Of a stretch of DNA of 64,000 nt, positions 2,337 to 30,938 are shown one piece after another. The position numbers were made by a program, and so were the translations under genes. The first letter of the stretch is position 1; each line of letters opens with the position of its first letter. The stretch is from Rhytidiadelphus loreus. Taxonomy: Eukaryota > Streptophyta > Bryopsida > Hypnales > Hylocomiaceae. Below the pieces are notes generated by a model that made no database searches, was not told where the DNA came from, and saw only the letters and a list, made by a program, of their open reading frames with translations. The stretch lies in contig OX344761.1 in the NCBI GenBank assembly GCA_947034895.1, forward strand, positions 28,036,863 through 28,100,862, given 5' to 3'.

Positions 2337-2898
2337 CTCAGAGGGTTCACTTAGAATGTTCATTAGAAACCATGTGCAAACAAAACTTTGGACCCCCTAT
2401 AATTTTTTTGAATTTTAAATTAAATTAAATTAAAAAATATGAATAGATTTTCCTACTTTAAAATTTTATATTTTGAAGTATTGATAATTTTATATATTAA
2501 TAATAATTAGTTATAAATTTTTGAAGTAAAAAGATAAACTGTAGAATTGAATAATAACTTTCACACCCCTATATTATATAAGAAAAGTTTGTCTTAAAAA
2601 TGAACGATTTAAAAATAAATAAATAACTATACTGAAAGCTCATTTTGAGTTGATTATTGATCCAATGGTCATCTAAATGTGTTCTCTATAATTATTTGAG
2701 TTTAAAAACATGCCATTTTAGTTCATTTTCAAGCTCTTCTAAAAATCATTTCGTATTTTATCTGAGTTGGAAAATTTGGCAATTGAAAAATTTAGTCATT
2801 ATTAAATAGTGCTCAAAATTTTAGGTTGAAATTATAGTTTATTAGAAACCACTTGTTTGCACGTGGTTGTTATAGTAGAACTAAGTGCACCCCTCGTG
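2337..2898. mobile_element. hAT-like MITE inserted in R
   Basis: A 562-bp segment present here and absent from the matching point of the second R copy near 18535. It is flanked by an 8-bp direct repeat ATTTGGAT (2329-2336 and 2899-2906). Its ends are imperfect inverted repeats: GAGGGTTCACTTAG on the left against CTAAGTGCACCCCTC on the right, with a second matching block CCATGTGCAAAC / GTTTGCACGTGG further in. The 8-bp target duplication fits a non-autonomous hAT element. It has no coding capacity. Confidence 0.7.
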
Positions 2899-5446: not shown

Positions 5447-5603
5447 GGTAACTTTGCCTATGACTGGCAAAACTTGGGATTAACCCAAAGAAGGCCAAAA
5501 AATTCACGAGTAGTACATATCACAAGACACAAGTACTGCTCATGATTTTTTGGCCTGCATAAGGCTTTGGTCCCAAGTTCTGCCTGTCATAGGTAGAGTT
5601 ACC
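5447..5603. mobile_element. 157-bp foldback MITE
   Basis: Present here and absent from the matching place in the second R copy (around 26850). Nearly the whole element folds on itself: GGTAACT at the left end pairs with AGTTACC at the right, followed by CCTATGACTGGC / GCCTGTCATAGG, AACTTGGG / CCCAAGTT and GGCCAAAAAAT / ATTTTTTGGCC. The flanks read TAGTATA and TTATAACA, compatible with a TA or TATA target duplication as in Tourist or Stowaway-like MITEs. Confidence 0.7.
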
Positions 5604-6456
5604 TTATAACATAGCTTGCTCTAAAAGTGACAATGCTCTAAAAGGGATCATAATACAAAGGTACATTTTGTTGTCTTCAATGTACCAACGAATGTACATT
5701 TCAAGAGGTCGTCACTTGAAAAAATTTGTAACTAATTCCATGAAGGTCCCAAAAATATGAAACAACTTGGGTTAGATGTGAATTCCCGATTTTATTCATT
5801 CAAAATTTCCTGAAAATTGTTTCAAGGAGTAGAGCTTACCTGAAAAGGCAATCAGCTATTAAATGGTCGACTATTTTACACACATACAATATACTTGAGT
5901 CTGGACACAGTTTGTAGTGTGGAAGCTTTTAACTGTAGATCCTTGTATCCAGCAAGTGTTGGTGGGTTCAACGAACTTTAAATTCTTAATGACCATGTTG
6001 GGGATGTTTGTAAGAATTCAAATCCTAAACTAATAATTACTTTTACTTTTTTCACTTTGATTGTATTTAAATATTGAACTTTTTAAAATTCTAAGATTGC
6101 TTCCACTTTTTCTCAAAATAAATTTACTTTCTATCATGGTTGAACTTTACTTTTGGAAATTCTTTTACTTTGAGATGTGTTCTAGTCCCTTATGAGAGAT
6201 TTACTTTAAAGTAAAAGATAGAGGGGCTATAAAATACACCTCTTGGACTTCTTATTGAGTATTACCAAACATCATACACATTGTATGCATTATATAATCA
6301 TTTGATTTTGGGTTCACTATTTAGTATTTCAAAGTATTCTACACATTTTATGCATACAATAATCGTTTGATTTTTTAATAAAGTGTATAAAGGAACTACC
6401 GGTAGAACAATTTAATAGGTATTGAAAAGATCATCCAAGCAAATTTAATATCCAAA

Positions 6457-6858
6457 ATGGCACCAACGTTGTGGGTTGCACCAAATCCAATGTCGAATGA
6501 AAAAACTCCTCATGGATTTGATGTTCTTAACGTATATGATCAAGAAAACGATGAATGGGACGTGGAACGTATTTTGGATGTACAAGAAATTGTTGTTGAC
6601 AACAATACCAACAAATTGGAAACTCAATATCTTGTGCTATGGAAGGGATATCCACTCGATTATGCTTCGTGGGAACCGGAAGAACACCTTACCAATTGTG
6701 AAGATAAAGTTCGGGAATTTTGGAAGATTATCGAAAAAGCAAGTGAACGAGAAAAGAAAAGTATTGAAGACCAGACACAAAATCTTTTTCGATTAGATCT
6801 GCAACCAAGAATTCAATCTATCAAGACTTATTTAGACTATACTCGTAATTCAAGCTAG
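6457..6858 (+). CDS. Small chromodomain protein (left-arm copy)
   Basis: An uninterrupted 133-residue ORF with a good start context (AAAATGGC). Residues about 35-90 form a chromodomain: EWDVERILD, then YLVLWKGYPLDYASWEPEEHL, with the aromatic residues that usually bind methylated lysine (W and Y around WKGYP). A basic/acidic helix follows (VREFWKIIEKASEREKK). In plants this arrangement is typical of the C-terminus of Ty3/gypsy chromovirus integrase, where it guides integration into heterochromatin. No integrase core is next to it and the ORF begins with its own Met, so it is either a retrotransposon fragment or a captured chromodomain reader. An identical copy lies at 28474-28875 on the minus strand, and both point into the palindrome. 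The domain call is firm; whether it is expressed is not known. Confidence 0.6.
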   Translation: MAPTLWVAPNPMSNEKTPHGFDVLNVYDQENDEWDVERILDVQEIVVDNNTNKLETQYLVLWKGYPLDYASWEPEEHLTNCEDKVREFWKIIEKASEREKKSIEDQTQNLFRLDLQPRIQSIKTYLDYTRNSS

Positions 6859-7907
6859 AATGATAGTTTTGTGATTTCATAGAAAATTGTCATTACATTG
6901 GTCACTCAAATATTGATGTAGATTACAATGTAAACTTATATTAATATCAATTTCCTTAATTTGGGAATATTTAATTACTTTGGTATAGGGTTCTAAACCC
7001 CAAATCTATATACGTCCTTGTTTGTGTCCTAAAATTAGATTTTTTTATTTAAATATTAATGTGTGACAATTTGGGGTACATGGAACACCACCAATTCAAC
7101 AAAATTGATGTGGTTTATTTGCGTCATTCATTCAAATGTTGTTATGGGTTACAATTATGTTTAATGAAATGTTGTTATGGATTACAATTATGTTTAACAT
7201 ATGGCTCTTAAATGTTTAATGAAATGGTGTTATGGATTATAAATTCAAAATTTGCAAATGTCAAATAATTGAAATCATACATGGTAAATTACAGATAGCC
7301 TATGACTGTCAATTTTTTTTCCCCTTCTTATTAAGTATGTGTTGCATCAAGCAGTCTCGAGTACCAATAAGTAGCTCTTACAAAAGCTGTCTGTCTGTGT
7401 ATTGATTTCACACTTCTCACATGCCACCACAGTGCGTCCCAATCACGTCTTAAGTACAACTAAGTTATGCACTACCCAATCACATTATTTATTTATTTTC
7501 CATTAATTTACTTCATAATTCACACCCTAAACTGAGCTGTCATGTGATAAAAGTGCCACCCGCCCAGCTCCATTATCTTATGTACAGTCAATGAATTTGT
7601 CATTAAAAATGTGAAATGTAAATTATAAGTCTGTGGATCGATGACTACTGGATGCAGTTTCAAATAATAAGTTGAAGTGAGTCAGTTCAGGCACTGAAAA
7701 TTCCATGCTCATCCATGTGCTTCAAAAAATAAAATACGTGTTTCCAAAAAATGAAGAAAAAAAGTTTTTTTTCCTATGCTTGTCATGTGAAACTTGATGT
7801 TTGTTTTGAGTTAGGAGATCTCAATCCAGAAATCTTGCTGTCCTTGCTTTTGCTTTACCCACTTAAGTTATGAATCCAACCATTTTGCTGATATTTATTG
7901 AACAACA
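6859..7907. other. Gene-free AT-rich DNA in left arm
   Basis: No gene or RNA is recognisable. There is a short local direct repeat near 7130-7240 (units with TGTTATGG...TTACAATTATGTTTAA). It is mirrored at 27425-28473. Confidence 0.6.
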
Positions 7908-10699
7908 ACCTGGAACATGGCCATTAGCAATTGAAAGTTTGTTGAAGCCATCAACACTTGTTGGACACAAGGATCTACACTTAAAAGCCTCCACACTAAT
8001 AACTGTGTTCAGACTCAAGTATATTATAATTATGTGTGTAAAGTAGTCTGCTCTAAAAGCGACCATTCTAATCTTTCAATCTACGTGGTCAAATGACTCC
8101 AAATTTGATTCACGTCATCTACAACATGTCCTCTACAAGATTGTACGGTTGAGATTTCTATACCTTACTAACATTTTGAACTACAACACTTCAAAAGCAA
8201 TGATGTTTTTGAACTCAAATAGGCCTTCGGCGATGAGGGGTTAAGAGTTGATTGCCTTTGGGGAAGCTAAACTCCTTGAAACAATTTTCAATAAATTTTG
8301 AAGGAATAAAATCGGGAATTGGCATCTAACCCAAGTTGTTTCATATTTTTGGGACCTTCATGGAATTAGTTACAAATTTTTTCAAGTGACCACCTCTTGA
8401 AATGTACATTTGTTGGTACATTGAAGACAACAAAATGTACCTTTGTGTTATGATCTCTTTTAGAGCAAGCTACCTTATATATACTAGCAACTTCAAATTG
8501 CAATGAATTATTGTGTTCAAGCGAGGAAGAATGCTCACTTGTCGTGCTTTAGGTTTAGATCTTGAACATTGAATGAAATAATTGAAAGATATTTCTCCAA
8601 GATGACATTGTGACGGATTTTGTGACAATAGTCTTGACAGGGGTGTTGACACAAATCCCATCACCACCCTTCTCACAATGTTACGACACTCTTGTTGCAA
8701 AATCTATTACATTTTCATCCTAGAGAAATATCATCCAATTATTTCATTCGACAGTCACAATGAAAACCTAGACTACAACAAGAGTCTTTTGATTGAACGT
8801 TGGAGTTCAATCAAAGCATTTTGAACACTAGCTTTAGTTGCTAATGAAGTGACTGCAATGTTGTTTGCAATGTTGTTTGCAATGTTTGTTTTTAATGTAT
8901 GTATTGATACTCATTAGCACTCATTATTATTGTTTGATTGTGCTAATTCACTTTTTAGAGAGAGTATTTGTACCATTAGTTGAACATTTAGATTTTTCTC
9001 TTTCTTGTGGTCAAGGTCAAGTAGTCTACTACCATTCAAATTAGTGATTCTGGAATCTTGTACAAAGCGCTTATTCTTGTCTATATTTTTCAGAGAAATA
9101 ATTGATTGAGTAGACTGAAATATGGGTGATATATATATCTACTCACATGGTCATTTGTCACACATTTTGTAGGAATAGGTGACATTTGTTATGCAAATGG
9201 GAGGGTTTAATAGATGTTGGAATTGGTAGATGACTAATGGTACTTAGCTTATCTACTTTAGATGACCATCAATTGAGAAATTTCACATTTTTTTTATAAG
9301 AGATTACATCTTCAATATGTTTTCACAATATTCTATGTTTTTGAATTTGTGTGTTTATACTCTTGAAGTTTTTGAAAACTAATTAGAAATAGCATATATA
9401 AATATTTGTATCAACTATACATTTTAAATTTTGCAAGTTTTCTAAATGGAATACATTCCACATTTAGATTTTATTTATGAATTAACACCTAAAGGACTAA
9501 ATTGCGTTTTTTTGGCAACATGACGACTTTGGGTAGCTCACTACGAATGGAATTTTCAATTTATTTTGCTAAATTTTTGGCACAACATGTCCCCAAGGGC
9601 TAGCTTTAAGGTGCAATAATTTTCATAACTTTTCACTACACGGATAAAAAATTACCGTAATATATGTAATTTTTATCGCTCCTTAGGTAGCTCAAAAAAT
9701 GGATTTTTCAAAAAATAAACTTTTGAACTTGCTTTCCTAGATTTGTATATCTATGGAAAGTTTTTAATCATTCCATTTTGATTGACTAGATGAAAATGGA
9801 TATGAGGAGTTTTAGATTGTGGGCAATTATAGAATCTCAACTCTACAATAAATTTCAAAGCTTTTTATTTAATTCAATTTTCAATATTTTGAAAAAAATA
9901 AAATCATTTGATGTACATTGTTTATTACAACTTTACAACCATTGGGATTGGAAATTTTCAATTCCATGACTAGATTCTTAACAATTTAGTATTTTGAATC
10001 ACACTCTATTTCTTTTTATTTACTATTTTTCTCAAGCATGAATATGAAATTTTTGTTGTTGAAATTTTTGTTGTGTATTCCCAACTTTTTTCTTCAACAT
10101 GATGTAGAGAATAAGAAATTCTAGGATCTACACATTTTTGTGTAAATTTTTTGAAAGATGAAACCTATTTATTTGGGAAGAGTTGAAAATATTTTTTTTG
10201 ACTTACATTTAGATTTGTTAATGAACAAATATAGATGAAGGTTTTAGCATTGCTTTGGAGTTGAGTGCTTTGAATTAGTTTTGAGCTTAAAAACATGAAA
10301 TTCTTATCACAGTTAACTAGAGTTACGGTTACAAACATTTAATCATTTTAATGGAAGTGATAGTAAAAGCAAGTTGAAATGTTACTATAATTTATGTAGA
10401 TCACTCTTTCAAATTAATGTAAAAAAGAAAATAATGATGCTACCATCTTGTCTTGCCTTAATGCTACACCTTGGGCACATGTTGTGTGAAATTTTCAAAA
10501 AATAAAAATAAAAACTCCATTTGTAGAAAATTGCCTAAAATTGGTATGTTGCCAAAAAAAATGTAATTTAGGGCTTTAGGGATTAAAATAACAATCTGAA
10601 GATCTAGAAAATAATAATAATTACATAATAAATTCACTCTATGTAGCTTGCTATGACATCTTGATATGATGTATTGAAATCATTTGAATAAAAATCAAG

Positions 10700-10707
10700 G
10701 TTGTGAC
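10700..10707. repeat. hAT target-site duplication, left end (left arm)
   Basis: GTTGTGAC, repeated at 16115-16122. Its complement GTCACAAC is present once in the uninterrupted R copy at 3580-3587. Confidence 0.9.
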
Positions 10708-11722
10708 CAACCCTTTTTTTTTCTGGTGATATGGGGCTAGAAATCACCAACTAAAAATGTACAGCAAAAAGGCCTTAAAGGAAAAAAAGAAAAAAAGAAG
10801 GAAAATGGAGCCTAAAACTTGCGTAGGATTTCCAGGCGGCAAACAGATGGCGTCACCCTCTCCCCACGCAGTCGCTAGGTTTGGCCTTTTGTCGGTGTTC
10901 AAATTTTCCCTTGCCTTGCCACATTCCGCTACCTCTGCGCCTTCCCTCGCCTACATTGTCGCGATGAAAGTTACGTTCGTTGCCAATTCATCACCACCAC
11001 AAGTTCTGTTTGTCGCCCTAAGCTTCTTTCTTTTTCATAATGCCGGAGCCAACAATTGTACAATCTATTCTACTCCATCGCCTCCAATTCCCCAACCTCA
11101 TTGAGTTTATTGTCACAGTTGTTGTGCTCCTTAGTGCTCTTCTTTCCACTCCTATGGCGTTAATTGCAATTGATTTCCAGTATTTGCTTCCACTCTTGTT
11201 TGTTCTTGCATTTCAGTGTTGCCTCGTCGCAATGGCAGTTATGAGCATTTGTTTCCACTCCTTGTCCTCAATCTTGTTTCTCTTTCATGATTTCTTGACG
11301 ATGGTGGGCGCATGGCTGCAGCATAAGAAGGTGTTTTGACAATGACTTAGGTATTCGTCTTCTCTTCTTGCTGCAGGAGACTCCTCGGACAAAACAGTAG
11401 TAGTTAGAACACTGAGGTTGTTTTGCATCCCTGGGAGGAGGTCATTTGAAGTTTTGAACAATGAATTCTCGATTATAGTATTGGATCTTTGCTGTTTGTA
11501 TGATCTGCGAGTTGTGTTTCTGGTTTTGGGTCCTCTTTGTGACACCGTGGTTTGAACAAAGCTCACCAAAGGTGGTTCTTAATGTTGTGGTTTTAGTTTG
11601 TTAGACACGCCATGGTTTGATACAAAATCGCCAAAGGCGTTTGTGATTGTAAGGAGATTAGGGTTTAGGGATTTTTTCTGTATTTCATCTTTGTTTTCTG
11701 CATCCAAGAGCTTCTCACTGCG

Positions 11723-14700
11723 ATGGTTGATGGTCGAAGGTCTCCTAGGCGTGAAGACTTTCATGTTTTGATGGAGACGTCTTGTGAAGTTCCTTTTGGA
11801 TTGGAGAGGCACGTGGTTGCAATGTCTGCAACAAAGGCTGCGAAACGCGACGCAGAGAAGGAGTCCGCTGCTTGCCGTCATGAGCTGAAGGGGAAGGCGG
11901 TTTGTGTAGAAGATTCAAAAGCCCATCAAAGCACACGGCAAGCTACTTCAATTGCTCAGTTTTTCACCAACTCTCGAAATGCAATAAACAAGCAACCCAT
12001 TTGCCTTGAATCCGACTCGCACTCGTAGTGAACTGATTCAAGATCTGTTCCATGCTTGAACTCTGTGTCTGTAGACACATTAGAGAATCAACCCCGAGTA
12101 CTTTCGAAGAGTAGCAGCAGTCGAGCGGACATTCCAGGGCTGCAGTTTTCAGAGGCTGTGCAAGAGAGCCACCGGCAATTACAAGATGATCTGCTGGAAA
12201 TCTCCGATGGTGAAAAAGACATTGAGTTTGATGATGATCTCCAAGTCCTCCCTGCACCTAAGAAACCCAAGGTCAATTACGATTGAACTTAACGTTTCTA
12301 GAATGAGTGGGCTGCAAAACTAGTGTGGGCAGAACCGATTAGAGAAAACGATGGGCATGTGCATCTTGTCAAGTTCACTGTTTGCTCCACCTTTGAGAAA
12401 AATCCAAAGATCTTGGGGCCTAGTGGGACACCCTTACCAAGCACAAGGGAAGGAGGAAGGCAACATTTGATATGCCAAAATACAACGTCAAACAAGGCGA
12501 ATGGTATATCTCTATGACAAGTAGGCATCAAATTAATCTCAAACACTTCGTTGCTAGACAACCTGCTTCAGTACTGCAGCAGGTCAACATGACCACTTTG
12601 ACTTTGAAGTCCAAGAAGATTGTCCAGTTTGCCACGATCTACCAGATCCTATCATTTGGACGTCCAATGGTTGAATACAAAGAGCGACAATCTCTGTATG
12701 CGTTTTTGAGTGTCCTCAATTTACCAAAGATGCACTAGTCGGATTCATCAGGGTGGAAGATGGCCAACTTTCTATACGAGCAAGTCAAGGAGTCAATCAA
12801 GAAGAAATTGAACGCTGCATACTTCATTGCCATCACTTGTGATGAAGTGACCACCGTCGACAATGGCAGCTGGATTTGCGTGCACGCCTACAATGTGGAG
12901 AATTATATTAGAATTCCTCACTTAATTTGCTTGAAACGTTTGGTTGATGGATCTGGAGCAGATACCTTGACTTTGCTCATTGTCAAGGCTTTGGAGTGCG
13001 CTGGTGATTTAACCATGGAGCAAATGTCGAGCCGTCTGTTGTGTTTTGGTGCAGATGGAGTGAGCACCTTCCAAGGCGTTCGCAGTAGGGTAACCATGCA
13101 AATCCACTCAAAATTTGCTCTTTTTTGTATGGGTGTTCATTGCATGGTCCACAAGTGTAATCTAGCTGCAAAGTCCTTGTCTGCGCTGCCTGTGTTTTCA
13201 GTTATTGAACAGGTGGTCCAGAAAATACACTCTTATTTTAGTAAGAGTCCAAAGCGATTATGCGAGTATCAAAAATTAGCGGAGGTGATGGAGACGAAAG
13301 GGATGAAACCACTTTTTTAAGTAACAACCAGATGGGTGTCACTACTGGAGCCACTACGGAGGTTGTTGGTTGATTATCGGACGCTTCTAGCAAAGATGAA
13401 GGAAGATGTCGGGAAGAATGACGCTGTAGAGGTATGTTCGTTACGAAACCCAAGCGCCACATTCAATATTCACTGCGGAGCCCAATCAAACGCATGTACA
13501 GCATGTGCCCATCTGGTCAAACGCAAACGGAAGGGGGTCTTGAGACATTTTATAATAGCAATGTAGGAGCTAAATCTAGAGCTGCATTGACTAATTTAAA
13601 CAGTGGGAGGAATCTGGGCACGCAAAACTATGTGAAAATTAGCAGAGATAGGACGGAGTGTGTTAGAAGTACGCTTATTGTGGGGCCAATTGTAAGAAAG
13701 TCGGGCCTCTCAATCCAGTATGAATTTTAAGATTGTTTTCTTCTTGCAATATGTCATGTTGGACAATACCTAACCTACACTTCTATCTGTCTTGTGAAGA
13801 AATGTTTGGATCTCATGTTGGACCCGTACACACTTTTGGAAATGACGGCTTTGATGCCACTCTTGGAAACAATCGACCTACTAGTGACATTTGCCCAAAA
13901 GCGTGATGTCTATGTGTGCGACTTTGTTGCCGCCTTAAAGATTGTTGAAGGGCAGTTGTATACTTTGTATGTGGACAAGGCAAGTGCGTATGGTGGAGAC
14001 AAGTTTTGGGCGTGGAAAAATGTGTTGGATTGCTTGCACAGCCAGATTCATACTAAGTGGATTTCCAACCTCAACAACGAGTCTGCTCAGCTGGTGTTCG
14101 TTGCTAATGGCCAGTCGATTTGGACACTGCACCAAGATACAACAGTAGATCGAGATGTCTTTGCTTCTGTGGTGCCACCATCAAGACATAGTGCACAGGT
14201 CAGATTTACCGTTGCACACTTCATTGCCGCTTGTTTTCCGGTTATCAAAATAACCCGCTCCAAGGAAAAATCAAGAAATTAATCCAAATTCCAAGCACAA
14301 TAAAATGATAGACAATGCGATTTCTTGCAATGAGCTACATCTTTGTTTCCTTGTCCTCATCTGTTGAAACCAGTGATTAGGACTTGAGTGCTACTGAGGA
14401 ATTTAAAATTTGTTTTGCAATAAGCTAGATTTGTGTTTCGTTTGTCGTTATCTTGCAGAAACCAACGATTGAGACTTCACTGGTACTATACAAAAAAACA
14501 ATCTTGCAATAAATTGCAATTTGTATTTCTTTATCGTCATTTGTAGAAATCCAGCGATCGAGACTTGAGTGCTGCTATACAAAAAGAAATTCTTGCAATA
14601 CCCTAGACCTGTGTTTCCTTGTCGGTATTTGCAAAAATCTACGACGAGACTTGAGTGGTGCTATACAGAAAAAAATTCTGACAATAAGCTAGATTTGTGT

Positions 14701-15636
14701 TTCCTTATTGTCATCTGCAGAAATCAACAATTCAGACTTGAGTGCTACTTAGGAACTTGTTTTCTTGCAATAAGCTAGATCTGTGTTTTCTTTTTGTCAT
14801 TTGCCTTGAATCCAAACTTCCGTGGTGCTTTACAGAATCACCTTTGCAAATTGCCTTGAAATTACGCAGAATAGAACTAAACAGCTAAGCGTGAAATAGT
14901 GGAGATAGTACACTGACCACCTCCTGTCAATTGAATACCTCCATTATGCACAGTACACTGATCACTTCCTTGTATGTAGAGTGTGTAATGTAGTGGCAAT
15001 TAGATTAATGATTATGAAATTGTGTGCATTGTTGTAGCGGCAGCCAGGGAGTTGTTGAGAGAGCTGGAAGCAAGGTTTCTCTCACACAACATAATGGATG
15101 CACTTGGCATTGTATACCCGCAGTATTGGCTTCAAAGTGATGCGGAAGAGTGTTTCCCAAAACATTTGGCAGTGTTCATGGACTACTACTATGAGCCAAA
15201 GTTGGTAGAACCTGATAAGGTAAAGCGCTTGGTTCCCCCTGTTTTGGACAGGTACAAATTGGAGACTAAGTAAGGCTTATTCAAATTAGCCATGTTCAAT
15301 AATGCTAAGAAGCATATGGAAGTTCCCTTCAACCTAAACCCCCTCACCTGTTTGTGGCGCTATTTAGATACTTGCACTGTTCTGAGAGTCAAGGCATTTC
15401 TAGAGTATTATAAGTTGGCTCAAGTTGCAATAGTGCAAGTTCTAGGTTCAGTTGAGGATGAGAGATGCTTTAGTTCACTTGCATTTCTCAAAAACAAATT
15501 GTAAAATTCTTTGGACATGCATTTGGAGTGTGTGGTGGGAATGTACTCACAAAAGATTTTTAGCCTAGAGACCTATCCATATGACGATGCCTATAATCAG
15601 TGGGCAGCTGCAGCAGACCGTAGATATGGGCTTTGA
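11723..15636 (+). pseudogene. Broken hAT transposase (left arm)
   Basis: Coding blocks in order: a basic, Ser-rich N-terminus (11723-12292); a block with GRRK, DMPKYNVKQGEWYISM and NLKHFVARQ (about 12330-12738); the catalytic-core-like block with FIAITCDEVTT, LLCFGADGVSTFQG and GVHCMVHKCNLAAKSL (12760-13320); TTRWVSLLEPLRRL (13324-13434), ending at a GTATGT donor; LLVTFAQKRDVYVCDFVAAL (13794-14282); and a C-terminal block with GSVEDERCFSSLAFLKNKL (15292-15636), the hAT dimerisation signature. Damage: a frameshift near 12420 and in-frame stops at 12736-12738, 13318-13320, 15271-15273 and after FLKNKL near 15502. Introns probably separate some blocks, including the tandem-repeat stretch 14321-14830. 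It cannot make a full transposase. The mirror copy has the same lesions. Confidence 0.85.
14321..14830 (+). repeat. Six-copy 86-90 bp tandem repeat inside hAT
   Basis: Units start near 14322, 14412, 14501, 14590, 14677 and 14762. The consensus parts are TTCTTGCAATAAGCTAGAT, TGTGTTTCCTTGTCGTCAT, TGCAGAAA and GAGACTTGAGTGCTACTA. It lies between two transposase coding blocks, so it is probably intronic. Confidence 0.8.
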
Positions 15637-16961
15637 GGTGGTTCTAGATTTTATAGACTTGTTGAAATTTTAAATCCATGCATGGTCTATGCCTCTCTCT
15701 TGAATGGATGGGCCCTGAGCAGCTTGGCTTCTTGTGTCCATCAAGATTCTCTTTCAATGAACATTTTATTTTTATGCATGTTGCCAATTGTACATTGCAT
15801 GCATTGTCAAATGGTGCCTGAATTCACACAAATCATTCTTTGAATTCGCCTTAGTATCTTCAAAAGTAATTTGCCAAGTGCCAGAAATTATGTGAATGTC
15901 TTTTCATTTTTGCCTTTTCTGCTTCAAAATATTTTTGCAAAGTGCCAAAATTTTCTATTAGCTCCTCTTAATTTTTGCTAGATGAAGTAGACCGAAATGC
16001 GATTGTCGCCAGCTTGCCTCTCGGTGGAAATTTCATCCCTCACCATGTGGGCAACACAAGCACAGACCCTAGTAGCGAGTCTAGCTTTTGTCTAAAAAGC
16101 TTAAAAAAGAGTTGGTTGTGACGCATTGTTGCAAATCACAAATCTTATATATACAATTCCATCATTCTAACTCCTTAAGTTCCTTGACTATGTTTTCACC
16201 AAAAATGCTCTAAAATTGCCATTTTTAGTACAAGTTCCAACTTTTAGAAGAAAAAAAACATTTTTGGACACAAAAAACCGTAGGATCTTGTAGTAAACTG
16301 GTTAGAAAAGGTGTGGAAAAAATTTCAGAAATTTCCACCGCATGGATTGCAAGATAGAGACATTCATATTCACAAAAAACATTTTTTTTCACCTTGCGAA
16401 AAACAGGGCAGTTGCACTTCACAAGCTCACTTTTCTATGAAGTTATGTCCAAAATGACGGTTCTTCTTTGAATTCTTTATCCTAGACAAGTTGGCTACGT
16501 GCTTAAAAAATTTCACATCATTTGGAATTGTACAACATATAAGGAAAAAATAGTAAGTAGAAAGAAGTAGAGTATGATTCAAAGTACAAAATTGTTAAGA
16601 ATTTAGTCGTGGAATTGAAAAATGCCAATCCCTATAGTTGCAATGTTGTAATAATCAATCTACATCCTATGGTTTTATTTTTTTCAACAAATATTGAAAA
16701 TTGAGTAAGATAAAGGACTTCAAAGTTTATTTTTAGAGCAAAGATTCTATAACTGCTTGCAAACTAAAATTCTTCATAACTTTTGACTCATTGATCCAAA
16801 TGGAATGATTCAAAGCTATCTGCATATATAGAACTCTAAAAAATCAATCTCAAGTTTTTATTTCTATAAAAAGTGACTGTATTTTATCAGCCTGGATTGC
16901 CCAACATGAAAAAAAGTAACAAATTAGGCCATGACTTTTGACTCATATTTCCAATTGTCAT

Positions 16962-18370: not shown

Positions 18371-19695
18371 ATGACAATTGGAAATATGAGTCAAAAGTCA
18401 TGGCCTAATTTGTTACTTTTTTTCATGTTGGGCAATCCAGGCTGATAAAATACAGTCACTTTTTATAGAAATAAAAACTTGAGATTGATTTTTTAGAGTT
18501 CTATATATGCAGATAGCTTTGAATCATTCCATTTGGATCAATGAGTCAAAAGTTATGAAGAATTTTAGTTTGCAAGCAGTTATAGAATCTTTGCTCTAAA
18601 AATAAACTTTGAAGTCCTTTATCTTACTCAATTTTCAATATTTGTTGAAAAAAATAAAACCATAGGATGTAGATTGATTATTACAACATTGCAACTATAG
18701 GGATTGGCATTTTTCAATTCCACGACTAAATTCTTAACAATTTTGTACTTTGAATCATACTCTACTTCTTTCTACTTACTATTTTTTCCTTATATGTTGT
18801 ACAATTCCAAATGATGTGAAATTTTTTAAGCACGTAGCCAACTTGTCTAGGATAAAGAATTCAAAGAAGAACCGTCATTTTGGACATAACTTCATAGAAA
18901 AGTGAGCTTGTGAAGTGCAACTGCCCTGTTTTTCGCAAGGTGAAAAAAAATGTTTTTTGTGAATATGAATGTCTCTATCTTGCAATCCATGCGGTGGAAA
19001 TTTCTGAAATTTTTTCCACACCTTTTCTAACCAGTTTACTACAAGATCCTACGGTTTTTTGTGTCCAAAAATGTTTTTTTTCTTCTAAAAGTTGGAACTT
19101 GTACTAAAAATGGCAATTTTAGAGCATTTTTGGTGAAAACATAGTCAAGGAACTTAAGGAGTTAGAATGATGGAATTGTATATATAAGATTTGTGATTTG
19201 CAACAATGCGTCACAACCAACTCTTTTTTAAGCTTTTTAGACAAAAGCTAGACTCGCTACTAGGGTCTGTGCTTGTGTTGCCCACATGGTGAGGGATGAA
19301 ATTTCCACCGAGAGGCAAGCTGGCGACAATCGCATTTCGGTCTACTTCATCTAGCAAAAATTAAGAGGAGCTAATAGAAAATTTTGGCACTTTGCAAAAA
19401 TATTTTGAAGCAGAAAAGGCAAAAATGAAAAGACATTCACATAATTTCTGGCACTTGGCAAATTACTTTTGAAGATACTAAGGCGAATTCAAAGAATGAT
19501 TTGTGTGAATTCAGGCACCATTTGACAATGCATGCAATGTACAATTGGCAACATGCATAAAAATAAAATGTTCATTGAAAGAGAATCTTGATGGACACAA
19601 GAAGCCAAGCTGCTCAGGGCCCATCCATTCAAGAGAGAGGCATAGACCATGCATGGATTTAAAATTTCAACAAGTCTATAAAATCTAGAACCACC

Positions 19696-22600
19696 TCAAA
19701 GCCCATATCTACGGTCTGCTGCAGCTGCCCACTGATTATAGGCATCGTCATATGGATAGGTCTCTAGGCTAAAAATCTTTTGTGAGTACATTCCCACCAC
19801 ACACTCCAAATGCATGTCCAAAGAATTTTACAATTTGTTTTTGAGAAATGCAAGTGAACTAAAGCATCTCTCATCCTCAACTGAACCTAGAACTTGCACT
19901 ATTGCAACTTGAGCCAACTTATAATACTCTAGAAATGCCTTGACTCTCAGAACAGTGCAAGTATCTAAATAGCGCCACAAACAGGTGAGGGGGTTTAGGT
20001 TGAAGGGAACTTCCATATGCTTCTTAGCATTATTGAACATGGCTAATTTGAATAAGCCTTACTTAGTCTCCAATTTGTACCTGTCCAAAACAGGGGGAAC
20101 CAAGCGCTTTACCTTATCAGGTTCTACCAACTTTGGCTCATAGTAGTAGTCCATGAACACTGCCAAATGTTTTGGGAAACACTCTTCCGCATCACTTTGA
20201 AGCCAATACTGCGGGTATACAATGCCAAGTGCATCCATTATGTTGTGTGAGAGAAACCTTGCTTCCAGCTCTCTCAACAACTCCCTGGCTGCCGCTACAA
20301 CAATGCACACAATTTCATAATCATTAATCTAATTGCCACTACATTACACACTCTACATACAAGGAAGTGATCAGTGTACTGTGCATAATGGAGGTATTCA
20401 ATTGACAGGAGGTGGTCAGTGTACTATCTCCACTATTTCACGCTTAGCTGTTTAGTTCTATTCTGCGTAATTTCAAGGCAATTTGCAAAGGTGATTCTGT
20501 AAAGCACCACGGAAGTTTGGATTCAAGGCAAATGACAAAAAGAAAACACAGATCTAGCTTATTGCAAGAAAACAAGTTCCTAAGTAGCACTCAAGTCTGA
20601 ATTGTTGATTTCTGCAGATGACAATAAGGAAACACAAATCTAGCTTATTGTCAGAATTTTTTTCTGTATAGCACCACTCAAGTCTCGTCGTAGATTTTTG
20701 CAAATACCGACAAGGAAACACAGGTCTAGGGTATTGCAAGAATTTCTTTTTGTATAGCAGCACTCAAGTCTCGATCGCTGGATTTCTACAAATGACGATA
20801 AAGAAATACAAATTGCAATTTATTGCAAGATTGTTTTTTTGTATAGTACCAGTGAAGTCTCAATCGTTGGTTTCTGCAAGATAACGACAAACGAAACACA
20901 AATCTAGCTTATTGCAAAACAAATTTTAAATTCCTCAGTAGCACTCAAGTCCTAATCACTGGTTTCAACAGATGAGGACAAGGAAACAAAGATGTAGCTC
21001 ATTGCAAGAAATCGCATTGTCTATCATTTTATTGTGCTTGGAATTTGGATTAATTTCTTGATTTTTCCTTGGAGCGGGTTATTTTGATAACCGGAAAACA
21101 AGCGGCAATGAAGTGTGCAACGGTAAATCTGACCTGTGCACTATGTCTTGATGGTGGCACCACAGAAGCAAAGACATCTCGATCTACTGTTGTATCTTGG
21201 TGCAGTGTCCAAATCGACTGGCCATTAGCAACGAACACCAGCTGAGCAGACTCGTTGTTGAGGTTGGAAATCCACTTAGTATGAATCTGGCTGTGCAAGC
21301 AATCCAACACATTTTTCCACGCCCAAAACTTGTCTCCACCATACGCACTTGCCTTGTCCACATACAAAGTATACAACTGCCCTTCAACAATCTTTAAGGC
21401 GGCAACAAAGTCGCACACATAGACATCACGCTTTTGGGCAAATGTCACTAGTAGGTCGATTGTTTCCAAGAGTGGCATCAAAGCCGTCATTTCCAAAAGT
21501 GTGTACGGGTCCAACATGAGATCCAAACATTTCTTCACAAGACAGATAGAAGTGTAGGTTAGGTATTGTCCAACATGACATATTGCAAGAAGAAAACAAT
21601 CTTAAAATTCATACTGGATTGAGAGGCCCGACTTTCTTACAATTGGCCCCACAATAAGCGTACTTCTAACACACTCCGTCCTATCTCTGCTAATTTTCAC
21701 ATAGTTTTGCGTGCCCAGATTCCTCCCACTGTTTAAATTAGTCAATGCAGCTCTAGATTTAGCTCCTACATTGCTATTATAAAATGTCTCAAGACCCCCT
21801 TCCGTTTGCGTTTGACCAGATGGGCACATGCTGTACATGCGTTTGATTGGGCTCCGCAGTGAATATTGAATGTGGCGCTTGGGTTTCGTAACGAACATAC
21901 CTCTACAGCGTCATTCTTCCCGACATCTTCCTTCATCTTTGCTAGAAGCGTCCGATAATCAACCAACAACCTCCGTAGTGGCTCCAGTAGTGACACCCAT
22001 CTGGTTGTTACTTAAAAAAGTGGTTTCATCCCTTTCGTCTCCATCACCTCCGCTAATTTTTGATACTCGCATAATCGCTTTGGACTCTTACTAAAATAAG
22101 AGTGTATTTTCTGGACCACCTGTTCAATAACTGAAAACACAGGCAGCGCAGACAAGGACTTTGCAGCTAGATTACACTTGTGGACCATGCAATGAACACC
22201 CATACAAAAAAGAGCAAATTTTGAGTGGATTTGCATGGTTACCCTACTGCGAACGCCTTGGAAGGTGCTCACTCCATCTGCACCAAAACACAACAGACGG
22301 CTCGACATTTGCTCCATGGTTAAATCACCAGCGCACTCCAAAGCCTTGACAATGAGCAAAGTCAAGGTATCTGCTCCAGATCCATCAACCAAACGTTTCA
22401 AGCAAATTAAGTGAGGAATTCTAATATAATTCTCCACATTGTAGGCGTGCACGCAAATCCAGCTGCCATTGTCGACGGTGGTCACTTCATCACAAGTGAT
22501 GGCAATGAAGTATGCAGCGTTCAATTTCTTCTTGATTGACTCCTTGACTTGCTCGTATAGAAAGTTGGCCATCTTCCACCCTGATGAATCCGACTAGTGC

Positions 22601-23609
22601 ATCTTTGGTAAATTGAGGACACTCAAAAACGCATACAGAGATTGTCGCTCTTTGTATTCAACCATTGGACGTCCAAATGATAGGATCTGGTAGATCGTGG
22701 CAAACTGGACAATCTTCTTGGACTTCAAAGTCAAAGTGGTCATGTTGACCTGCTGCAGTACTGAAGCAGGTTGTCTAGCAACGAAGTGTTTGAGATTAAT
22801 TTGATGCCTACTTGTCATAGAGATATACCATTCGCCTTGTTTGACGTTGTATTTTGGCATATCAAATGTTGCCTTCCTCCTTCCCTTGTGCTTGGTAAGG
22901 GTGTCCCACTAGGCCCCAAGATCTTTGGATTTTTCTCAAAGGTGGAGCAAACAGTGAACTTGACAAGATGCACATGCCCATCGTTTTCTCTAATCGGTTC
23001 TGCCCACACTAGTTTTGCAGCCCACTCATTCTAGAAACGTTAAGTTCAATCGTAATTGACCTTGGGTTTCTTAGGTGCAGGGAGGACTTGGAGATCATCA
23101 TCAAACTCAATGTCTTTTTCACCATCGGAGATTTCCAGCAGATCATCTTGTAATTGCCGGTGGCTCTCTTGCACAGCCTCTGAAAACTGCAGCCCTGGAA
23201 TGTCCGCTCGACTGCTGCTACTCTTCGAAAGTACTCGGGGTTGATTCTCTAATGTGTCTACAGACACAGAGTTCAAGCATGGAACAGATCTTGAATCAGT
23301 TCACTACGAGTGCGAGTCGGATTCAAGGCAAATGGGTTGCTTGTTTATTGCATTTCGAGAGTTGGTGAAAAACTGAGCAATTGAAGTAGCTTGCCGTGTG
23401 CTTTGATGGGCTTTTGAATCTTCTACACAAACCGCCTTCCCCTTCAGCTCATGACGGCAAGCAGCGGACTCCTTCTCTGCGTCGCGTTTCGCAGCCTTTG
23501 TTGCAGACATTGCAACCACGTGCCTCTCCAATCCAAAAGGAACTTCACAAGACGTCTCCATCAAAACATGAAAGTCTTCACGCCTAGGAGACCTTCGACC
23601 ATCAACCAT
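19696..23609 (-). pseudogene. Broken hAT transposase (right arm)
   Basis: Same coding blocks, frameshift and in-frame stops as the left-arm gene at mirrored positions (core 22012-22572, C-terminal dimerisation block up to 20040). The shared lesions show that decay happened before the inverted duplication or was copied by gene conversion. Confidence 0.85.
20502..21011 (-). repeat. Six-copy 86-90 bp tandem repeat inside hAT (right arm)
   Basis: Mirror of 14321-14830, with the same copy number. Tandem repeats change copy number quickly, so equal arrays argue for a very recent duplication, ongoing conversion or an assembly artefact. Confidence 0.8.
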
Positions 23610-26600
23610 CGCAGTGAGAAGCTCTTGGATGCAGAAAACAAAGATGAAATACAGAAAAAATCCCTAAACCCTAATCTCCTTACAATCACAAACGCCTTTG
23701 GCGATTTTGTATCAAACCATGGCGTGTCTAACAAACTAAAACCACAACATTAAGAACCACCTTTGGTGAGCTTTGTTCAAACCACGGTGTCACAAAGAGG
23801 ACCCAAAACCAGAAACACAACTCGCAGATCATACAAACAGCAAAGATCCAATACTATAATCGAGAATTCATTGTTCAAAACTTCAAATGACCTCCTCCCA
23901 GGGATGCAAAACAACCTCAGTGTTCTAACTACTACTGTTTTGTCCGAGGAGTCTCCTGCAGCAAGAAGAGAAGACGAATACCTAAGTCATTGTCAAAACA
24001 CCTTCTTATGCTGCAGCCATGCGCCCACCATCGTCAAGAAATCATGAAAGAGAAACAAGATTGAGGACAAGGAGTGGAAACAAATGCTCATAACTGCCAT
24101 TGCGACGAGGCAACACTGAAATGCAAGAACAAACAAGAGTGGAAGCAAATACTGGAAATCAATTGCAATTAACGCCATAGGAGTGGAAAGAAGAGCACTA
24201 AGGAGCACAACAACTGTGACAATAAACTCAATGAGGTTGGGGAATTGGAGGCGATGGAGTAGAATAGATTGTACAATTGTTGGCTCCGGCATTATGAAAA
24301 AGAAAGAAGCTTAGGGCGACAAACAGAACTTGTGGTGGTGATGAATTGGCAACGAACGTAACTTTCATCGCGACAATGTAGGCGAGGGAAGGCGCAGAGG
24401 TAGCGGAATGTGGCAAGGCAAGGGAAAATTTGAACACCGACAAAAGGCCAAACCTAGCGACTGCGTGGGGAGAGGGTGACGCCATCTGTTTGCCGCCTGG
24501 AAATCCTACGCAAGTTTTAGGCTCCATTTTCCTTCTTTTTTTCTTTTTTTCCTTTAAGGCCTTTTTGCTGTACATTTTTAGTTGGTGATTTCTAGCCCCA
24601 TATCACCAGAAAAAAAAAGGGTTGGTCACAACCTTGATTTTTATTCAAATGATTTCAATACATCATATCAAGATGTCATAGCAAGCTACATAGAGTGAAT
24701 TTATTATGTAATTATTATTATTTTCTAGATCTTCAGATTGTTATTTTAATCCCTAAAGCCCTAAATTACATTTTTTTTGGCAACATACCAATTTTAGGCA
24801 ATTTTCTACAAATGGAGTTTTTATTTTTATTTTTTGAAAATTTCACACAACATGTGCCCAAGGTGTAGCATTAAGGCAAGACAAGATGGTAGCATCATTA
24901 TTTTCTTTTTTACATTAATTTGAAAGAGTGATCTACATAAATTATAGTAACATTTCAACTTGCTTTTACTATCACTTCCATTAAAATGATTAAATGTTTG
25001 TAACCGTAACTCTAGTTAACTGTGATAAGAATTTCATGTTTTTAAGCTCAAAACTAATTCAAAGCACTCAACTCCAAAGCAATGCTAAAACCTTCATCTA
25101 TATTTGTTCATTAACAAATCTAAATGTAAGTCAAAAAAAATATTTTCAACTCTTCCCAAATAAATAGGTTTCATCTTTCAAAAAATTTACACAAAAATGT
25201 GTAGATCCTAGAATTTCTTATTCTCTACATCATGTTGAAGAAAAAAGTTGGGAATACACAACAAAAATTTCAACAACAAAAATTTCATATTCATGCTTGA
25301 GAAAAATAGTAAATAAAAAGAAATAGAGTGTGATTCAAAATACTAAATTGTTAAGAATCTAGTCATGGAATTGAAAATTTCCAATCCCAATGGTTGTAAA
25401 GTTGTAATAAACAATGTACATCAAATGATTTTATTTTTTTCAAAATATTGAAAATTGAATTAAATAAAAAGCTTTGAAATTTATTGTAGAGTTGAGATTC
25501 TATAATTGCCCACAATCTAAAACTCCTCATATCCACTTTCATCTAGTCAATCAAAATGGAATGATTAAAAACTTTCCATAGATATACAAATCTAGGAAAG
25601 CAAGTTCAAAAGTTTATTTTTTGAAAAATCCATTTTTTGAGCTACCTAAGGAGCGATAAAAATTACATATATTACGGTAATTTTTTATCCGTGTAGTGAA
25701 AAGTTATGAAAATTATTGCACCTTAAAGCTAGCCCTTGGGGACATGTTGTGCCAAAAATTTAGCAAAATAAATTGAAAATTCCATTCGTAGTGAGCTACC
25801 CAAAGTCGTCATGTTGCCAAAAAAACGCAATTTAGTCCTTTAGGTGTTAATTCATAAATAAAATCTAAATGTGGAATGTATTCCATTTAGAAAACTTGCA
25901 AAATTTAAAATGTATAGTTGATACAAATATTTATATATGCTATTTCTAATTAGTTTTCAAAAACTTCAAGAGTATAAACACACAAATTCAAAAACATAGA
26001 ATATTGTGAAAACATATTGAAGATGTAATCTCTTATAAAAAAAATGTGAAATTTCTCAATTGATGGTCATCTAAAGTAGATAAGCTAAGTACCATTAGTC
26101 ATCTACCAATTCCAACATCTATTAAACCCTCCCATTTGCATAACAAATGTCACCTATTCCTACAAAATGTGTGACAAATGACCATGTGAGTAGATATATA
26201 TATCACCCATATTTCAGTCTACTCAATCAATTATTTCTCTGAAAAATATAGACAAGAATAAGCGCTTTGTACAAGATTCCAGAATCACTAATTTGAATGG
26301 TAGTAGACTACTTGACCTTGACCACAAGAAAGAGAAAAATCTAAATGTTCAACTAATGGTACAAATACTCTCTCTAAAAAGTGAATTAGCACAATCAAAC
26401 AATAATAATGAGTGCTAATGAGTATCAATACATACATTAAAAACAAACATTGCAAACAACATTGCAAACAACATTGCAGTCACTTCATTAGCAACTAAAG
26501 CTAGTGTTCAAAATGCTTTGATTGAACTCCAACGTTCAATCAAAAGACTCTTGTTGTAGTCTAGGTTTTCATTGTGACTGTCGAATGAAATAATTGGATG

Positions 26601-27424
26601 ATATTTCTCTAGGATGAAAATGTAATAGATTTTGCAACAAGAGTGTCGTAACATTGTGAGAAGGGTGGTGATGGGATTTGTGTCAACACCCCTGTCAAGA
26701 CTATTGTCACAAAATCCGTCACAATGTCATCTTGGAGAAATATCTTTCAATTATTTCATTCAATGTTCAAGATCTAAACCTAAAGCACGACAAGTGAGCA
26801 TTCTTCCTCGCTTGAACACAATAATTCATTGCAATTTGAAGTTGCTAGTATATATAAGGTAGCTTGCTCTAAAAGAGATCATAACACAAAGGTACATTTT
26901 GTTGTCTTCAATGTACCAACAAATGTACATTTCAAGAGGTGGTCACTTGAAAAAATTTGTAACTAATTCCATGAAGGTCCCAAAAATATGAAACAACTTG
27001 GGTTAGATGCCAATTCCCGATTTTATTCCTTCAAAATTTATTGAAAATTGTTTCAAGGAGTTTAGCTTCCCCAAAGGCAATCAACTCTTAACCCCTCATC
27101 GCCGAAGGCCTATTTGAGTTCAAAAACATCATTGCTTTTGAAGTGTTGTAGTTCAAAATGTTAGTAAGGTATAGAAATCTCAACCGTACAATCTTGTAGA
27201 GGACATGTTGTAGATGACGTGAATCAAATTTGGAGTCATTTGACCACGTAGATTGAAAGATTAGAATGGTCGCTTTTAGAGCAGACTACTTTACACACAT
27301 AATTATAATATACTTGAGTCTGAACACAGTTATTAGTGTGGAGGCTTTTAAGTGTAGATCCTTGTGTCCAACAAGTGTTGATGGCTTCAACAAACTTTCA
27401 ATTGCTAATGGCCATGTTCCAGGT

Positions 27425-28473
27425 TGTTGTTCAATAAATATCAGCAAAATGGTTGGATTCATAACTTAAGTGGGTAAAGCAAAAGCAAGGACAGCAAGAT
27501 TTCTGGATTGAGATCTCCTAACTCAAAACAAACATCAAGTTTCACATGACAAGCATAGGAAAAAAAACTTTTTTTCTTCATTTTTTGGAAACACGTATTT
27601 TATTTTTTGAAGCACATGGATGAGCATGGAATTTTCAGTGCCTGAACTGACTCACTTCAACTTATTATTTGAAACTGCATCCAGTAGTCATCGATCCACA
27701 GACTTATAATTTACATTTCACATTTTTAATGACAAATTCATTGACTGTACATAAGATAATGGAGCTGGGCGGGTGGCACTTTTATCACATGACAGCTCAG
27801 TTTAGGGTGTGAATTATGAAGTAAATTAATGGAAAATAAATAAATAATGTGATTGGGTAGTGCATAACTTAGTTGTACTTAAGACGTGATTGGGACGCAC
27901 TGTGGTGGCATGTGAGAAGTGTGAAATCAATACACAGACAGACAGCTTTTGTAAGAGCTACTTATTGGTACTTGAGACTGCTTGATGCAACACATACTTA
28001 ATAAGAAGGGGAAAAAAAATTGACAGTCATAGGCTATCTGTAATTTACCATGTATGATTTCAATTATTTGACATTTGCAAATTTTGAATTTATAATCCAT
28101 AACACCATTTCATTAAACATTTAAGAGCCATATGTTAAACATAATTGTAATCCATAACAACATTTCATTAAACATAATTGTAACCCATAACAACATTTGA
28201 ATGAATGACGCAAATAAACCACATCAATTTTGTTGAATTGGTGGTGTTCCATGTACCCCAAATTGTCACACATTAATATTTAAATAAAAAAATCTAATTT
28301 TAGGACACAAACAAGGACGTATATAGATTTGGGGTTTAGAACCCTATACCAAAGTAATTAAATATTCCCAAATTAAGGAAATTGATATTAATATAAGTTT
28401 ACATTGTAATCTACATCAATATTTGAGTGACCAATGTAATGACAATTTTCTATGAAATCACAAAACTATCATT
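27425..28473. other. Gene-free AT-rich DNA in right arm
   Basis: Mirror of 6859-7907. No gene seen. Confidence 0.6.
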
Positions 28474-28875
28474 CTAGCTTGAATTACGAGTATAGTCTAA
28501 ATAAGTCTTGATAGATTGAATTCTTGGTTGCAGATCTAATCGAAAAAGATTTTGTGTCTGGTCTTCAATACTTTTCTTTTCTCGTTCACTTGCTTTTTCG
28601 ATAATCTTCCAAAATTCCCGAACTTTATCTTCACAATTGGTAAGGTGTTCTTCCGGTTCCCACGAAGCATAATCGAGTGGATATCCCTTCCATAGCACAA
28701 GATATTGAGTTTCCAATTTGTTGGTATTGTTGTCAACAACAATTTCTTGTACATCCAAAATACGTTCCACGTCCCATTCATCGTTTTCTTGATCATATAC
28801 GTTAAGAACATCAAATCCATGAGGAGTTTTTTCATTCGACATTGGATTTGGTGCAACCCACAACGTTGGTGCCAT
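28474..28875 (-). CDS. Small chromodomain protein (right-arm copy)
   Basis: Identical 133-residue ORF to that at 6457-6858, on the opposite strand and also pointing into the palindrome. The chromodomain motif YLVLWKGYPLDYASWEP is intact. Same caveat: it could be a stranded integrase C-terminus of a chromovirus rather than a host gene. Confidence 0.6.
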   Translation of the reverse strand: MAPTLWVAPNPMSNEKTPHGFDVLNVYDQENDEWDVERILDVQEIVVDNNTNKLETQYLVLWKGYPLDYASWEPEEHLTNCEDKVREFWKIIEKASEREKKSIEDQTQNLFRLDLQPRIQSIKTYLDYTRNSS

Positions 28876-29217
28876 TTTGGATATTAAATTTGCTTGGATG
28901 ATCTTTTCAATACCTATTAAATTGTTCTACCGGTAGTTCCTTTATACACTTTATTAAAAAATCAAACGATTATTGTATGCATAAAATGTGTAGAATACTT
29001 TGAAATACTAAATAGTGAACCCAAAATCAAATGATTATATAATGCATACAATGTGTATGATGTTTGGTAATACTCAATAAGAAGTCCAAGAGGTGTATTT
29101 TATAGCCCCTCTATCTTTTACTTTAAAGTAAATCTCTCATAAGGGACTAGAACACATCTCAAAGTAAAAGAATTTCCAAAAGTAAAGTTCAACCATGATA
29201 GAAAGTAAATTTATTTT

Positions 29218-30857: not shown

Positions 30858-30938
30858 ATGTTTCGTCAGATACAGGAGAACCCAATGTTTCGTCAGATAC
30901 AAGAGAATCCGATGTTGCGGCAATTGTCGCAGGATCAG
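30858..30938 (+). repeat. 27-bp coding repeats, N-terminus of GT34 copy 1
   Basis: Three 9-codon units: two of MFRQIQENP and one diverged MLRQLSQDQ. The paralogue at 42875 has four units. Confidence 0.85.

What the first reader, a model, noticed from the sequence alone, without database searches (positions are those of the whole stretch)
6115..29217. A 23.1-kb near-perfect palindrome with 10.8-kb arms and a 1.4-kb unique spacer
Every ORF from 6445 to 16422 recurs at the exact mirror coordinate (sum 35332) with identical translation, stops included, and the joints can be placed to the base (6115, 16961, 18371, 29217). Arms this long without any net indel are rare in plant chromosomes. They imply a very recent event, strong arm-to-arm gene conversion, or an assembly artefact. 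The spacer, and the fact that R continues from the spacer into only the right arm, argue against a simple read-folding artefact.
Basis: seen in the sequence. Interest (0 to 1): 0.88.

Follow-up and report, generated by a model that had tools for sequence, protein, structure and literature searches.

The report
Recent 10.8-kb inverted duplication around transposon
A 10.8-kb piece of a plant chromosome containing a dead jumping gene appears to have been copied backwards next to itself very recently, giving an almost perfect DNA palindrome of a rare but already known kind.

Summary
The palindrome is in the sequence and its coordinates are exact to the base: arms 6115-16961 and 18371-29217 (10,847 bp), 2 mismatches, no indels, spacer 16962-18370. 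The host is a plant: 407-Mb assembly, no N in 264 kb around the locus.

The right arm is the original. An older diverged paralog in the left flank (1806-5999, blocks 85-97%) and a repeat about 118 kb to the right run unbroken from spacer into right arm; the left arm is the copy. Each arm carries the same decayed 5,407-bp hAT-type transposon; the left-flank paralog keeps the empty site. A 582-bp piece of it is at most 94% identical elsewhere, so one duplication, not two insertions, explains the arms.

At the inner left joint an old repeat is cut; three informative paralogs of five suggest about 7 bp of microhomology and about 10 bp of filler. Best reading: recent snap-back or template-switch repair copied the right arm backwards and joined it to the left flank.

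Gene conversion is not needed. An assembly artefact is unlikely but cannot be excluded without reads. A hairpin-RNA silencing role is possible and untested.

The parts
6115..16961 (-). Left arm: inverted copy of the right arm
   Evidence: 10,847 bp, 2 mismatches, 0 gaps to 18371-29217; its joint 16961|16962 is the novel one
18371..29217 (+). Right arm: the original copy, continuous with the spacer
   Evidence: Left-flank paralog 1806-2337 aligns to 18008-18539 across 18370|18371; a repeat at 136943-137764 (window coordinates extended to the right) aligns to 18342-19164 across the same point, with 29 bp on the spacer side
16962..18370 (+). Spacer, 1,409 bp: first ~10 bp unmatched (possible filler), then a truncated old repeat (about 16971-17889), then the start of the unit shared with the left flank (from 18008)
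   Evidence: One 100% copy among 56 listed matches; repeat family at 66-80%, 8 of the 56 matches starting at spacer base 10-15 and none but the locus itself earlier; truncation seen against L034-L036
1806..5999 (+). L0: older paralog of 18008-27418 in direct orientation, used as outgroup; keeps the empty site of the hAT insertion
   Evidence: Blocks at 85-97% identity
10708..16114 (+). Decayed hAT-type transposon in the left arm, 5,407 bp, end CAACCCTTTTTT...; TSD GTTGTGAC at 10700-10707 and 16115-16122
   Evidence: Ends and TSD; of 5 other copies fetched, 4 reach both ends and all 4 have 8-bp TSDs and similar ends
19218..24624 (-). Same hAT element in the right arm; TSD GTCACAAC at 19210-19217 and 24625-24632; empty site in L0 near 3580-3588
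12739..14282 (+). Largest open pieces of the element's coding region (12739-13320 and 13731-14282), broken by stops and frame changes; mirror 21050-22593 (-)
   Evidence: no Pfam match for these two pieces
6406..6858 (+). 150-aa open frame with a chromodomain (PF00385); mirror 28474-28926 (-)
   Evidence: (E 2.4e-15)
6114..6115 (.). Outer left joint J1 (novel): ..CCACTTTTTCTC|AAAATAAATTT..; 11-mer TTTTTCTCAAA also at the right arm's outer end
16961..16962 (.). Inner left joint J2 (novel): ..CCAATTGTCAT|TATGGACACTGTCATTTGCC..
7359..7359 (.). Arm difference 1: CTCGAG here, CTCAAG in the right arm read on the same strand (27973)
9796..9796 (.). Arm difference 2 (25536 in the right arm); L0 agrees with the left arm, so the right arm changed

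Best explanation
A genuine and recent interstitial inverted duplication. A chromosome end broken inside an old repeat just left of the present spacer snapped back on itself (or a replication fork switched template) near base 18371, using a short match around CAATTGT. It copied the right arm backwards for 10.8 kb to 29217, and was then joined to the left flank at 6114, with loss of at least part of the old repeat. Shown: the structure in the assembly, its sharp edges, which arm is original, that the hAT element was already present, and that a repeat is cut at the inner left joint. Inferred: that the structure exists in the plant, the break, the snap-back or template switch, the loss of DNA, and the age. 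The element inside is a passenger; the palindrome has no demonstrated function.
For: Exact arms with base-sharp ends. Two outgroup copies run unbroken across 18370|18371, L0 for 363 bp on the spacer side and a second repeat for 29 bp. A 582-bp hAT probe is 100% identical in both arms and at most 94% in the other 18 of 20 listed matches, and L0 has the empty site. The spacer repeat is cut at J2, while L034 and L036 align with each other at least 370 bp further; the family reads ACAATTGTGTG there in L034 and the arm ends in CCAATTGTCAT. The lost half was not found in 1-6114 at E<=1e-4. Two transitions and no indels: age about 13,000 years (1,600-48,000) at a recalled rate of 7e-9 per site per year.
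Against: No reads, so physical existence is unproven. The J2 match is modest: P(>=7) = 0.030 for random 20-bp ends against the L034 sequence, and L035 shares only 4 bp. J1 has no end-to-end microhomology on the known sides; the 11-mer there has P = 0.0038 in AT-rich windows, before correction for six joint pairs in two orientations. Foldback events that I recall mostly concern chromosome ends, whereas this one is interstitial. The ancestral sequence to the right of 6114 could not be recovered because the genome search for it did not complete.
Confidence: 0.6

Rival explanations
1. Assembly artefact: a foldback or chimeric long read (nanopore, missed adapter, or whole-genome amplification) was built into the contig, so the plant has only the right arm.
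For: A strand folding back 1.4 kb away would give one novel inner joint and a spacer continuous with one arm, as seen here (inference). Foldback reads are reported at 0.55-0.6% of ONT genomic reads and recur at the same places (PMC12870357, passages). Artificial inverted duplications from amplification reached a published assembly (PMC6218980, passages). The sequencing method here is unknown.
Against: The foldbacks of PMC12870357 are defined by segments mapping within 200 bp, unlike a 1,409-bp genomic spacer; virtually none were seen in PacBio HiFi. It needs a second false joint at 6114|6115, with no N in 264 kb. The arms differ by two transitions and no indels, one polarised by an outgroup; copies of one molecule should be identical or differ by random, mostly indel, errors (recalled). 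No further 100% copy of the 582-bp element probe or of the spacer among the listed matches.
Confidence: 0.15
2. An old palindrome kept identical by arm-to-arm gene conversion, as on mammalian Y and willow W chromosomes.
For: Very high arm identity beside a left-flank paralog at 85-97%; plant precedent with gene conversion on the willow W (PMC7023750, abstract and two sections seen). Conversion between L0 and the right arm may have occurred: the block between the two transposon insertions is 96-99% identical per 100 bp, against 83-98% in the other windows up to 5999.
Against: No ragged edge: identity is complete to the last base at all four ends, where conversion should be least effective (inference). 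Recency alone explains the identity. No intact gene was recognised in the arms; selection was not tested.
Confidence: 0.13
3. The inverted duplication was made by aberrant (alternative-end) transposition of the hAT element, as described for maize Ac/Ds (recalled, not looked up).
For: A hAT-type element with both ends lies in each arm.
Against: The joints are not at element ends: 16961 is 847 bp from the element end at 16114, and 6115 is 4.6 kb from the other end. The element is decayed.
Confidence: 0.04
4. The arms are two insertions of one large mobile element in opposite orientation.
For: The region is rich in repeats.
Against: No terminal repeats at arm ends and no flanking target duplication seen by eye; one arm is continuous with outgroup sequence across its inner end; the nested hAT in both arms shares one insertion site.
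Confidence: 0.02

Closest known systems
Soybean I locus (27-kb inverted repeat of CHS1-3-4)
   Same: Plant chromosome, two identical inverted arms of 10.91 kb with a kilobase spacer (5.71 kb) (PMC6710647, one passage seen)
   Different: Arms there hold chalcone synthase genes and give siRNAs with a seed-coat phenotype; here the arms hold a decayed hAT-type element and old repeats, spacer 1.4 kb, no RNA evidence
Mu killer of maize
   Same: Inverted duplication of part of a DNA transposon, proposed source of silencing RNA (PMC3440606, passages seen)
   Different: Mutator family, duplicated part ~1.3 kb; here hAT type, 5.4-kb element within 10.8-kb arms, silencing untested. That paper itself found short antisense transcripts in silencing plants and questions the read-through hairpin model
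Foldback inversions in yeast via single-strand hairpins
   Same: A loop, one novel inner joint, copying backwards from a snapped-back 3' end (PMC7467729, abstract and section 6 seen)
   Different: Those are gross rearrangements selected in yeast strains, in the passages seen mostly repair mutants; this one is interstitial and in a plant
Willow W chromosome palindromes
   Same: Large plant palindromes with highly similar stretches in the arms (PMC7023750, abstract and sections 13 and 17)
   Different: Those span 200 kb, carry genes of the sex-determining region and show gene conversion; whether C1 here is a sex chromosome was not tested

Membership tests
Near-perfect inverted duplication (palindrome) in a plant chromosome | Two long arms, opposite orientation, >99.9% identity, short spacer | tested here: met
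Near-perfect inverted duplication (palindrome) in a plant chromosome | Physically present in the organism | not testable with these tools
   No reads available; no N in 264 kb is only indirect support
Foldback (snap-back) inversion | One arm continuous with the spacer, one novel inner joint | tested here: met
Foldback (snap-back) inversion | Short inverted match at the novel inner joint that could form the hairpin stem | tested here: inconclusive
   CAATTGT shared with 2 of 3 informative paralogs (5 fetched), P about 0.03
Gene-conversion-maintained palindrome | Age older than arm identity suggests (species differences shared by both arms) | not testable with these tools
   No relative genome held (output)
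hAT transposon (the passenger) | 8-bp target site duplication | tested here: met
   GTCACAAC here; 4 of 4 other copies with both ends read; 5 copies were fetched, one lacked the second end
hAT transposon (the passenger) | Short terminal inverted repeats | tested here: met
   CArCCCTTTTTT-type ends; the 5' ends vary (TAGCCC in L029, CAACCT in L032, AAGCCC in L033)
hAT transposon (the passenger) | hAT transposase domain | tested here: inconclusive
   8 pieces gave no hAT match in Pfam even at E<=10, only one irrelevant sub-threshold hit; no PDB match for 2 pieces; a C-terminal ERCFSSLAFLKNKL stretch looks hAT-like from recall only
Silencing hairpin locus (I locus, Mu killer type) | Transcribed across the spacer and giving siRNAs | not testable with these tools
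   No RNA data

The most novel reading that the evidence does not exclude
The palindrome is a newborn silencing locus: any transcript crossing the spacer would fold into a 10.8-kb hairpin RNA whose stem includes the whole 5.4-kb hAT-type element, and its siRNAs would act in trans on the related copies elsewhere in the genome. That would be a natural hAT counterpart of Mu killer, caught within thousands of years of its birth.
Probability: 0.1. Interest if true: 0.65.

Novelty: new member of a known kind. Interest (0 to 1): 0.36.

Why it matters
If physically real, it is a well-preserved example of how long plant palindromes are born. The original arm, the empty transposon site, the broken repeat at the joint and the possible filler can all still be read, so the repair mechanism can be tested. 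It would also provide a fresh inverted repeat of a DNA transposon, in which the question of whether new inverted repeats start transposon silencing can be checked with small-RNA data. If it is an artefact, it is a warning that a long palindrome with a genomic spacer and two sharp joints can still be false.

Tried and rejected
Pfam on the element's pieces gave nothing relevant and PDB nothing for 2 pieces. The idea that 6114 and 16962 were simply contiguous before an insertion was tested by looking for the missing half of the cut repeat in 1-6114: not found, so DNA was probably lost or the event was more complex. Arms as one mobile element: rejected (no ends, no target duplication seen). A tandem duplication followed by inversion was considered and set aside as needing extra breaks. 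tRNA and Rfam scans were empty. Genome searches with 16900-30300 and with 5600-6114 did not complete, so copies of the whole arm and the ancestral sequence to the right of 6114 remain unknown. Waiting scripts without analysis; searches also held a wait.

It defines foldbacks by segments within 200 bp, so my first wording, that the spacer argument does not hold, was too strong; the artefact odds were lowered from 0.17 to 0.15 for that reason. Distances, identity ranges and the list of other inverted repeats were also corrected.
Full report
OBSERVATION. A self-comparison of the window finds 6115-16961 and 18371-29217 as an inverted repeat of 10,847 bp with 2 mismatches and no gaps; base-by-base mirroring at sum 35332 gives the same four joints. 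The mismatches are 7359 (G; right arm read on the same strand A) and 9796 (A; G). The first changes one codon of the short ORF 7223-7405, so translations are nearly, not wholly, identical (worked out). Outside the joints the mirrored identity is 0.29 and 0.21 over 100 bp. In the 264 kb around it there is no N. Among the 70 best pairs listed, inverted repeats not involving the arms are at most 1.3 kb: the longest at 83-87%, shorter ones up to 92% (366 bp) and 95% (130 bp).

WHERE IT IS. The window is C1:28036863-28100862 of a 407-Mb assembly in 489 contigs. A tandem pair of glycosyltransferase-34 genes lies just right of the palindrome (Pfam run on the first copy only; the second copy by DNA similarity); the first was compared with the PDB and matches xyloglucan 6-xylosyltransferases 1, 2 and 5, which from recall are plant enzymes. 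So this is a plant, probably a land plant. C1 to C5 together hold about 395 Mb (contig lengths).

WHICH ARM IS ORIGINAL. The left flank 1806-5999 (L0) is an older copy of 18008-27418 in direct orientation, 85-97% identical by block. Its first block begins inside the spacer and runs into the right arm without a break at 18370|18371. A second repeat, about 118 kb to the right, also runs across that point at 75%, with 29 bp on the spacer side. So spacer and right arm are the old arrangement and 16961|16962 is new. At 25536 both L0 and the left arm have T where the right arm has C, so the right arm changed after the copy was made. The other difference is CG in the left arm against CA/TG in the right, which would fit methyl-cytosine decay in the right arm; it has no outgroup.

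WHAT IS IN THE ARMS. Each arm holds a 5,407-bp element (10708-16114; 19218-24624) with ends of CAACCCTTTTTT / CAACTCTTTTTT type and an 8-bp target duplication, GTCACAAC; L0 has the site once, empty. Five other copies were fetched. All five align to the element and 4 of 5 reach both ends; those four each have their own 8-bp target duplication, with some variation in the first bases of the 5' end. That is the hAT signature (recalled), though Pfam found no transposase domain in the broken pieces. A 582-bp piece is 100% identical in the two arms and 94% or less in the other 18 of 20 listed matches, so the arms share one insertion event. A 150-aa frame with a chromodomain lies near each outer end. 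No intact gene was recognised in the arms; selection was not tested.

THE JOINTS. The spacer occurs once at 100% among 56 listed matches (40 of 1690 candidates were scored). Its first 900 bp or so belong to an old dispersed repeat, 66-80% identical; 8 of the 56 matches start at spacer base 10-15, and only the locus itself starts earlier. Of five copies fetched with upstream sequence, L034 and L036 align with each other for at least 370 bp beyond that point and L035 also continues, interrupted by an insert; L037 and L038 do not help. So the repeat in the spacer is cut at the joint. Upstream of the cut the family reads ACAATTGTGTGTTAT (L034), with GCAATTGTGTGCTAT in L036 and ACAATCGTGTGTTGT in L035; the left arm ends CCAATTGTCAT and then come about ten unmatched bases before the repeat resumes at GTCATTTGCC. 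A 7-bp match is shared with L034 and L036 and only 4 bp with L035; against L034 a random 20-bp end reaches 7 or more in 3.0% of 20,000 draws. The missing half of the repeat is not in 1-6114 at E<=1e-4. At the outer joint the two known sides share no end-to-end bases. The 11-mer TTTTTCTCAAA stands at both outer joints in direct orientation (P = 0.0038 in about 4,000 pairs of windows with at least 70% AT, before correction for six joint pairs in two orientations). I treat it as a hint of a complex joint, no more.

MECHANISM. The structure is left flank | reversed right arm | spacer | right arm, with novel joints at 6114|6115 (inferred, since no outgroup spans the outer ends) and 16961|16962. That is what a 3' end broken in the repeat gives if it folds back, primes near 18371, copies to 29217 and is then joined to another end. 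Template switching of a stalled fork gives the same product, and the two cannot be told apart here. Foldback by single-strand hairpins is described in yeast (PMC7467729, abstract and section 6 seen). With 2 differences in 10,847 bp and a recalled rate of 7e-9 per site per year the age is about 13,000 years, 1,600-48,000; slower or faster rates scale it.

RIVALS. It is not conclusive, because a strand could fold back further away, and amplification artefacts also make inverted duplications (PMC6218980, passages). Also against artefact stand the second joint, N-free sequence, two transitions without indels, and no further 100% copy of the arm probe or spacer in the listed matches. Gene conversion: reported on the willow W (PMC7023750; abstract and sections 13 and 17 seen), but here the edges are sharp to the base and recency suffices. 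Transposon-end mechanisms: the joints are 847 bp and 4.6 kb from the element's ends.

KNOWN KINDS. The closest plant case is the soybean I locus with two identical 10.91-kb inverted repeats 5.71 kb apart (PMC6710647, one passage). The closest in content is Mu killer, an inverted duplication of a transposon piece (PMC3440606, passages); that paper questions the read-through hairpin model of how it silences. Whether the present locus makes silencing RNA is unknown. An inverted repeat alone need not: a title in the reference list of PMC12259633 says inverted-repeat T-DNAs were not sufficient to trigger silencing; I saw only the title. The glycosyltransferase genes to the right lie on the + strand and so point away from the palindrome; they offer no obvious read-through promoter.

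VERDICT. Observation confirmed and sharpened; interpretation narrowed to a recent inverted duplication of the right arm, most likely by snap-back or template-switch repair; a new member of a known kind. I make no claim that palindromes like this are unreported in plants.

Noticed in passing
2337-2898: L0 carries a 562-bp insert with imperfect terminal inverted repeats and 8-bp target duplication ATTTGGAT (2329-2336, 2899-2906), absent from the arms; a relative lies in L035 148-897 and another about 6.4 kb left of the window.
   Followed up: partly
2899-3588 against 18531-19218: This block, lying exactly between the insert of L0 and the hAT insertion of the right arm, is 96.8% identical while the other blocks are 85-93%; perhaps an old conversion tract stopped at the two insertions.
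   Followed up: partly
30366-33402 and 42318-45532: Tandem pair of xyloglucan xylosyltransferase-like genes, apparently with introns; the two best-matching blocks are 98.5% (955 bp) and 97.0% (462 bp) identical, with a 39-bp tandem repeat in the second copy (44699-44806).
   Followed up: no
window coordinates 65555-69263 and 99028-102712 (right of the window): A direct duplication of 3.7 kb at 96.9% identity.
   Followed up: no
14415-14804 (mirror 20528-20917): Degenerate tandem array of 86-bp units (4.5 copies) inside the hAT element; repeated alignments in L029-L032 suggest similar arrays there.
   Followed up: no
60674-61423 (-): Open frame with an NLI-interacting-factor-like phosphatase domain (PF03031), next to a 512-aa open frame 61807-63345 (-) without a Pfam match.
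   Followed up: no
16962-18370: CpG observed/expected in the spacer is 0.16, against 0.58 in the hAT element and 0.90 in the first xylosyltransferase gene (30846-32794), suggesting old methylated repeat sequence.
   Followed up: no
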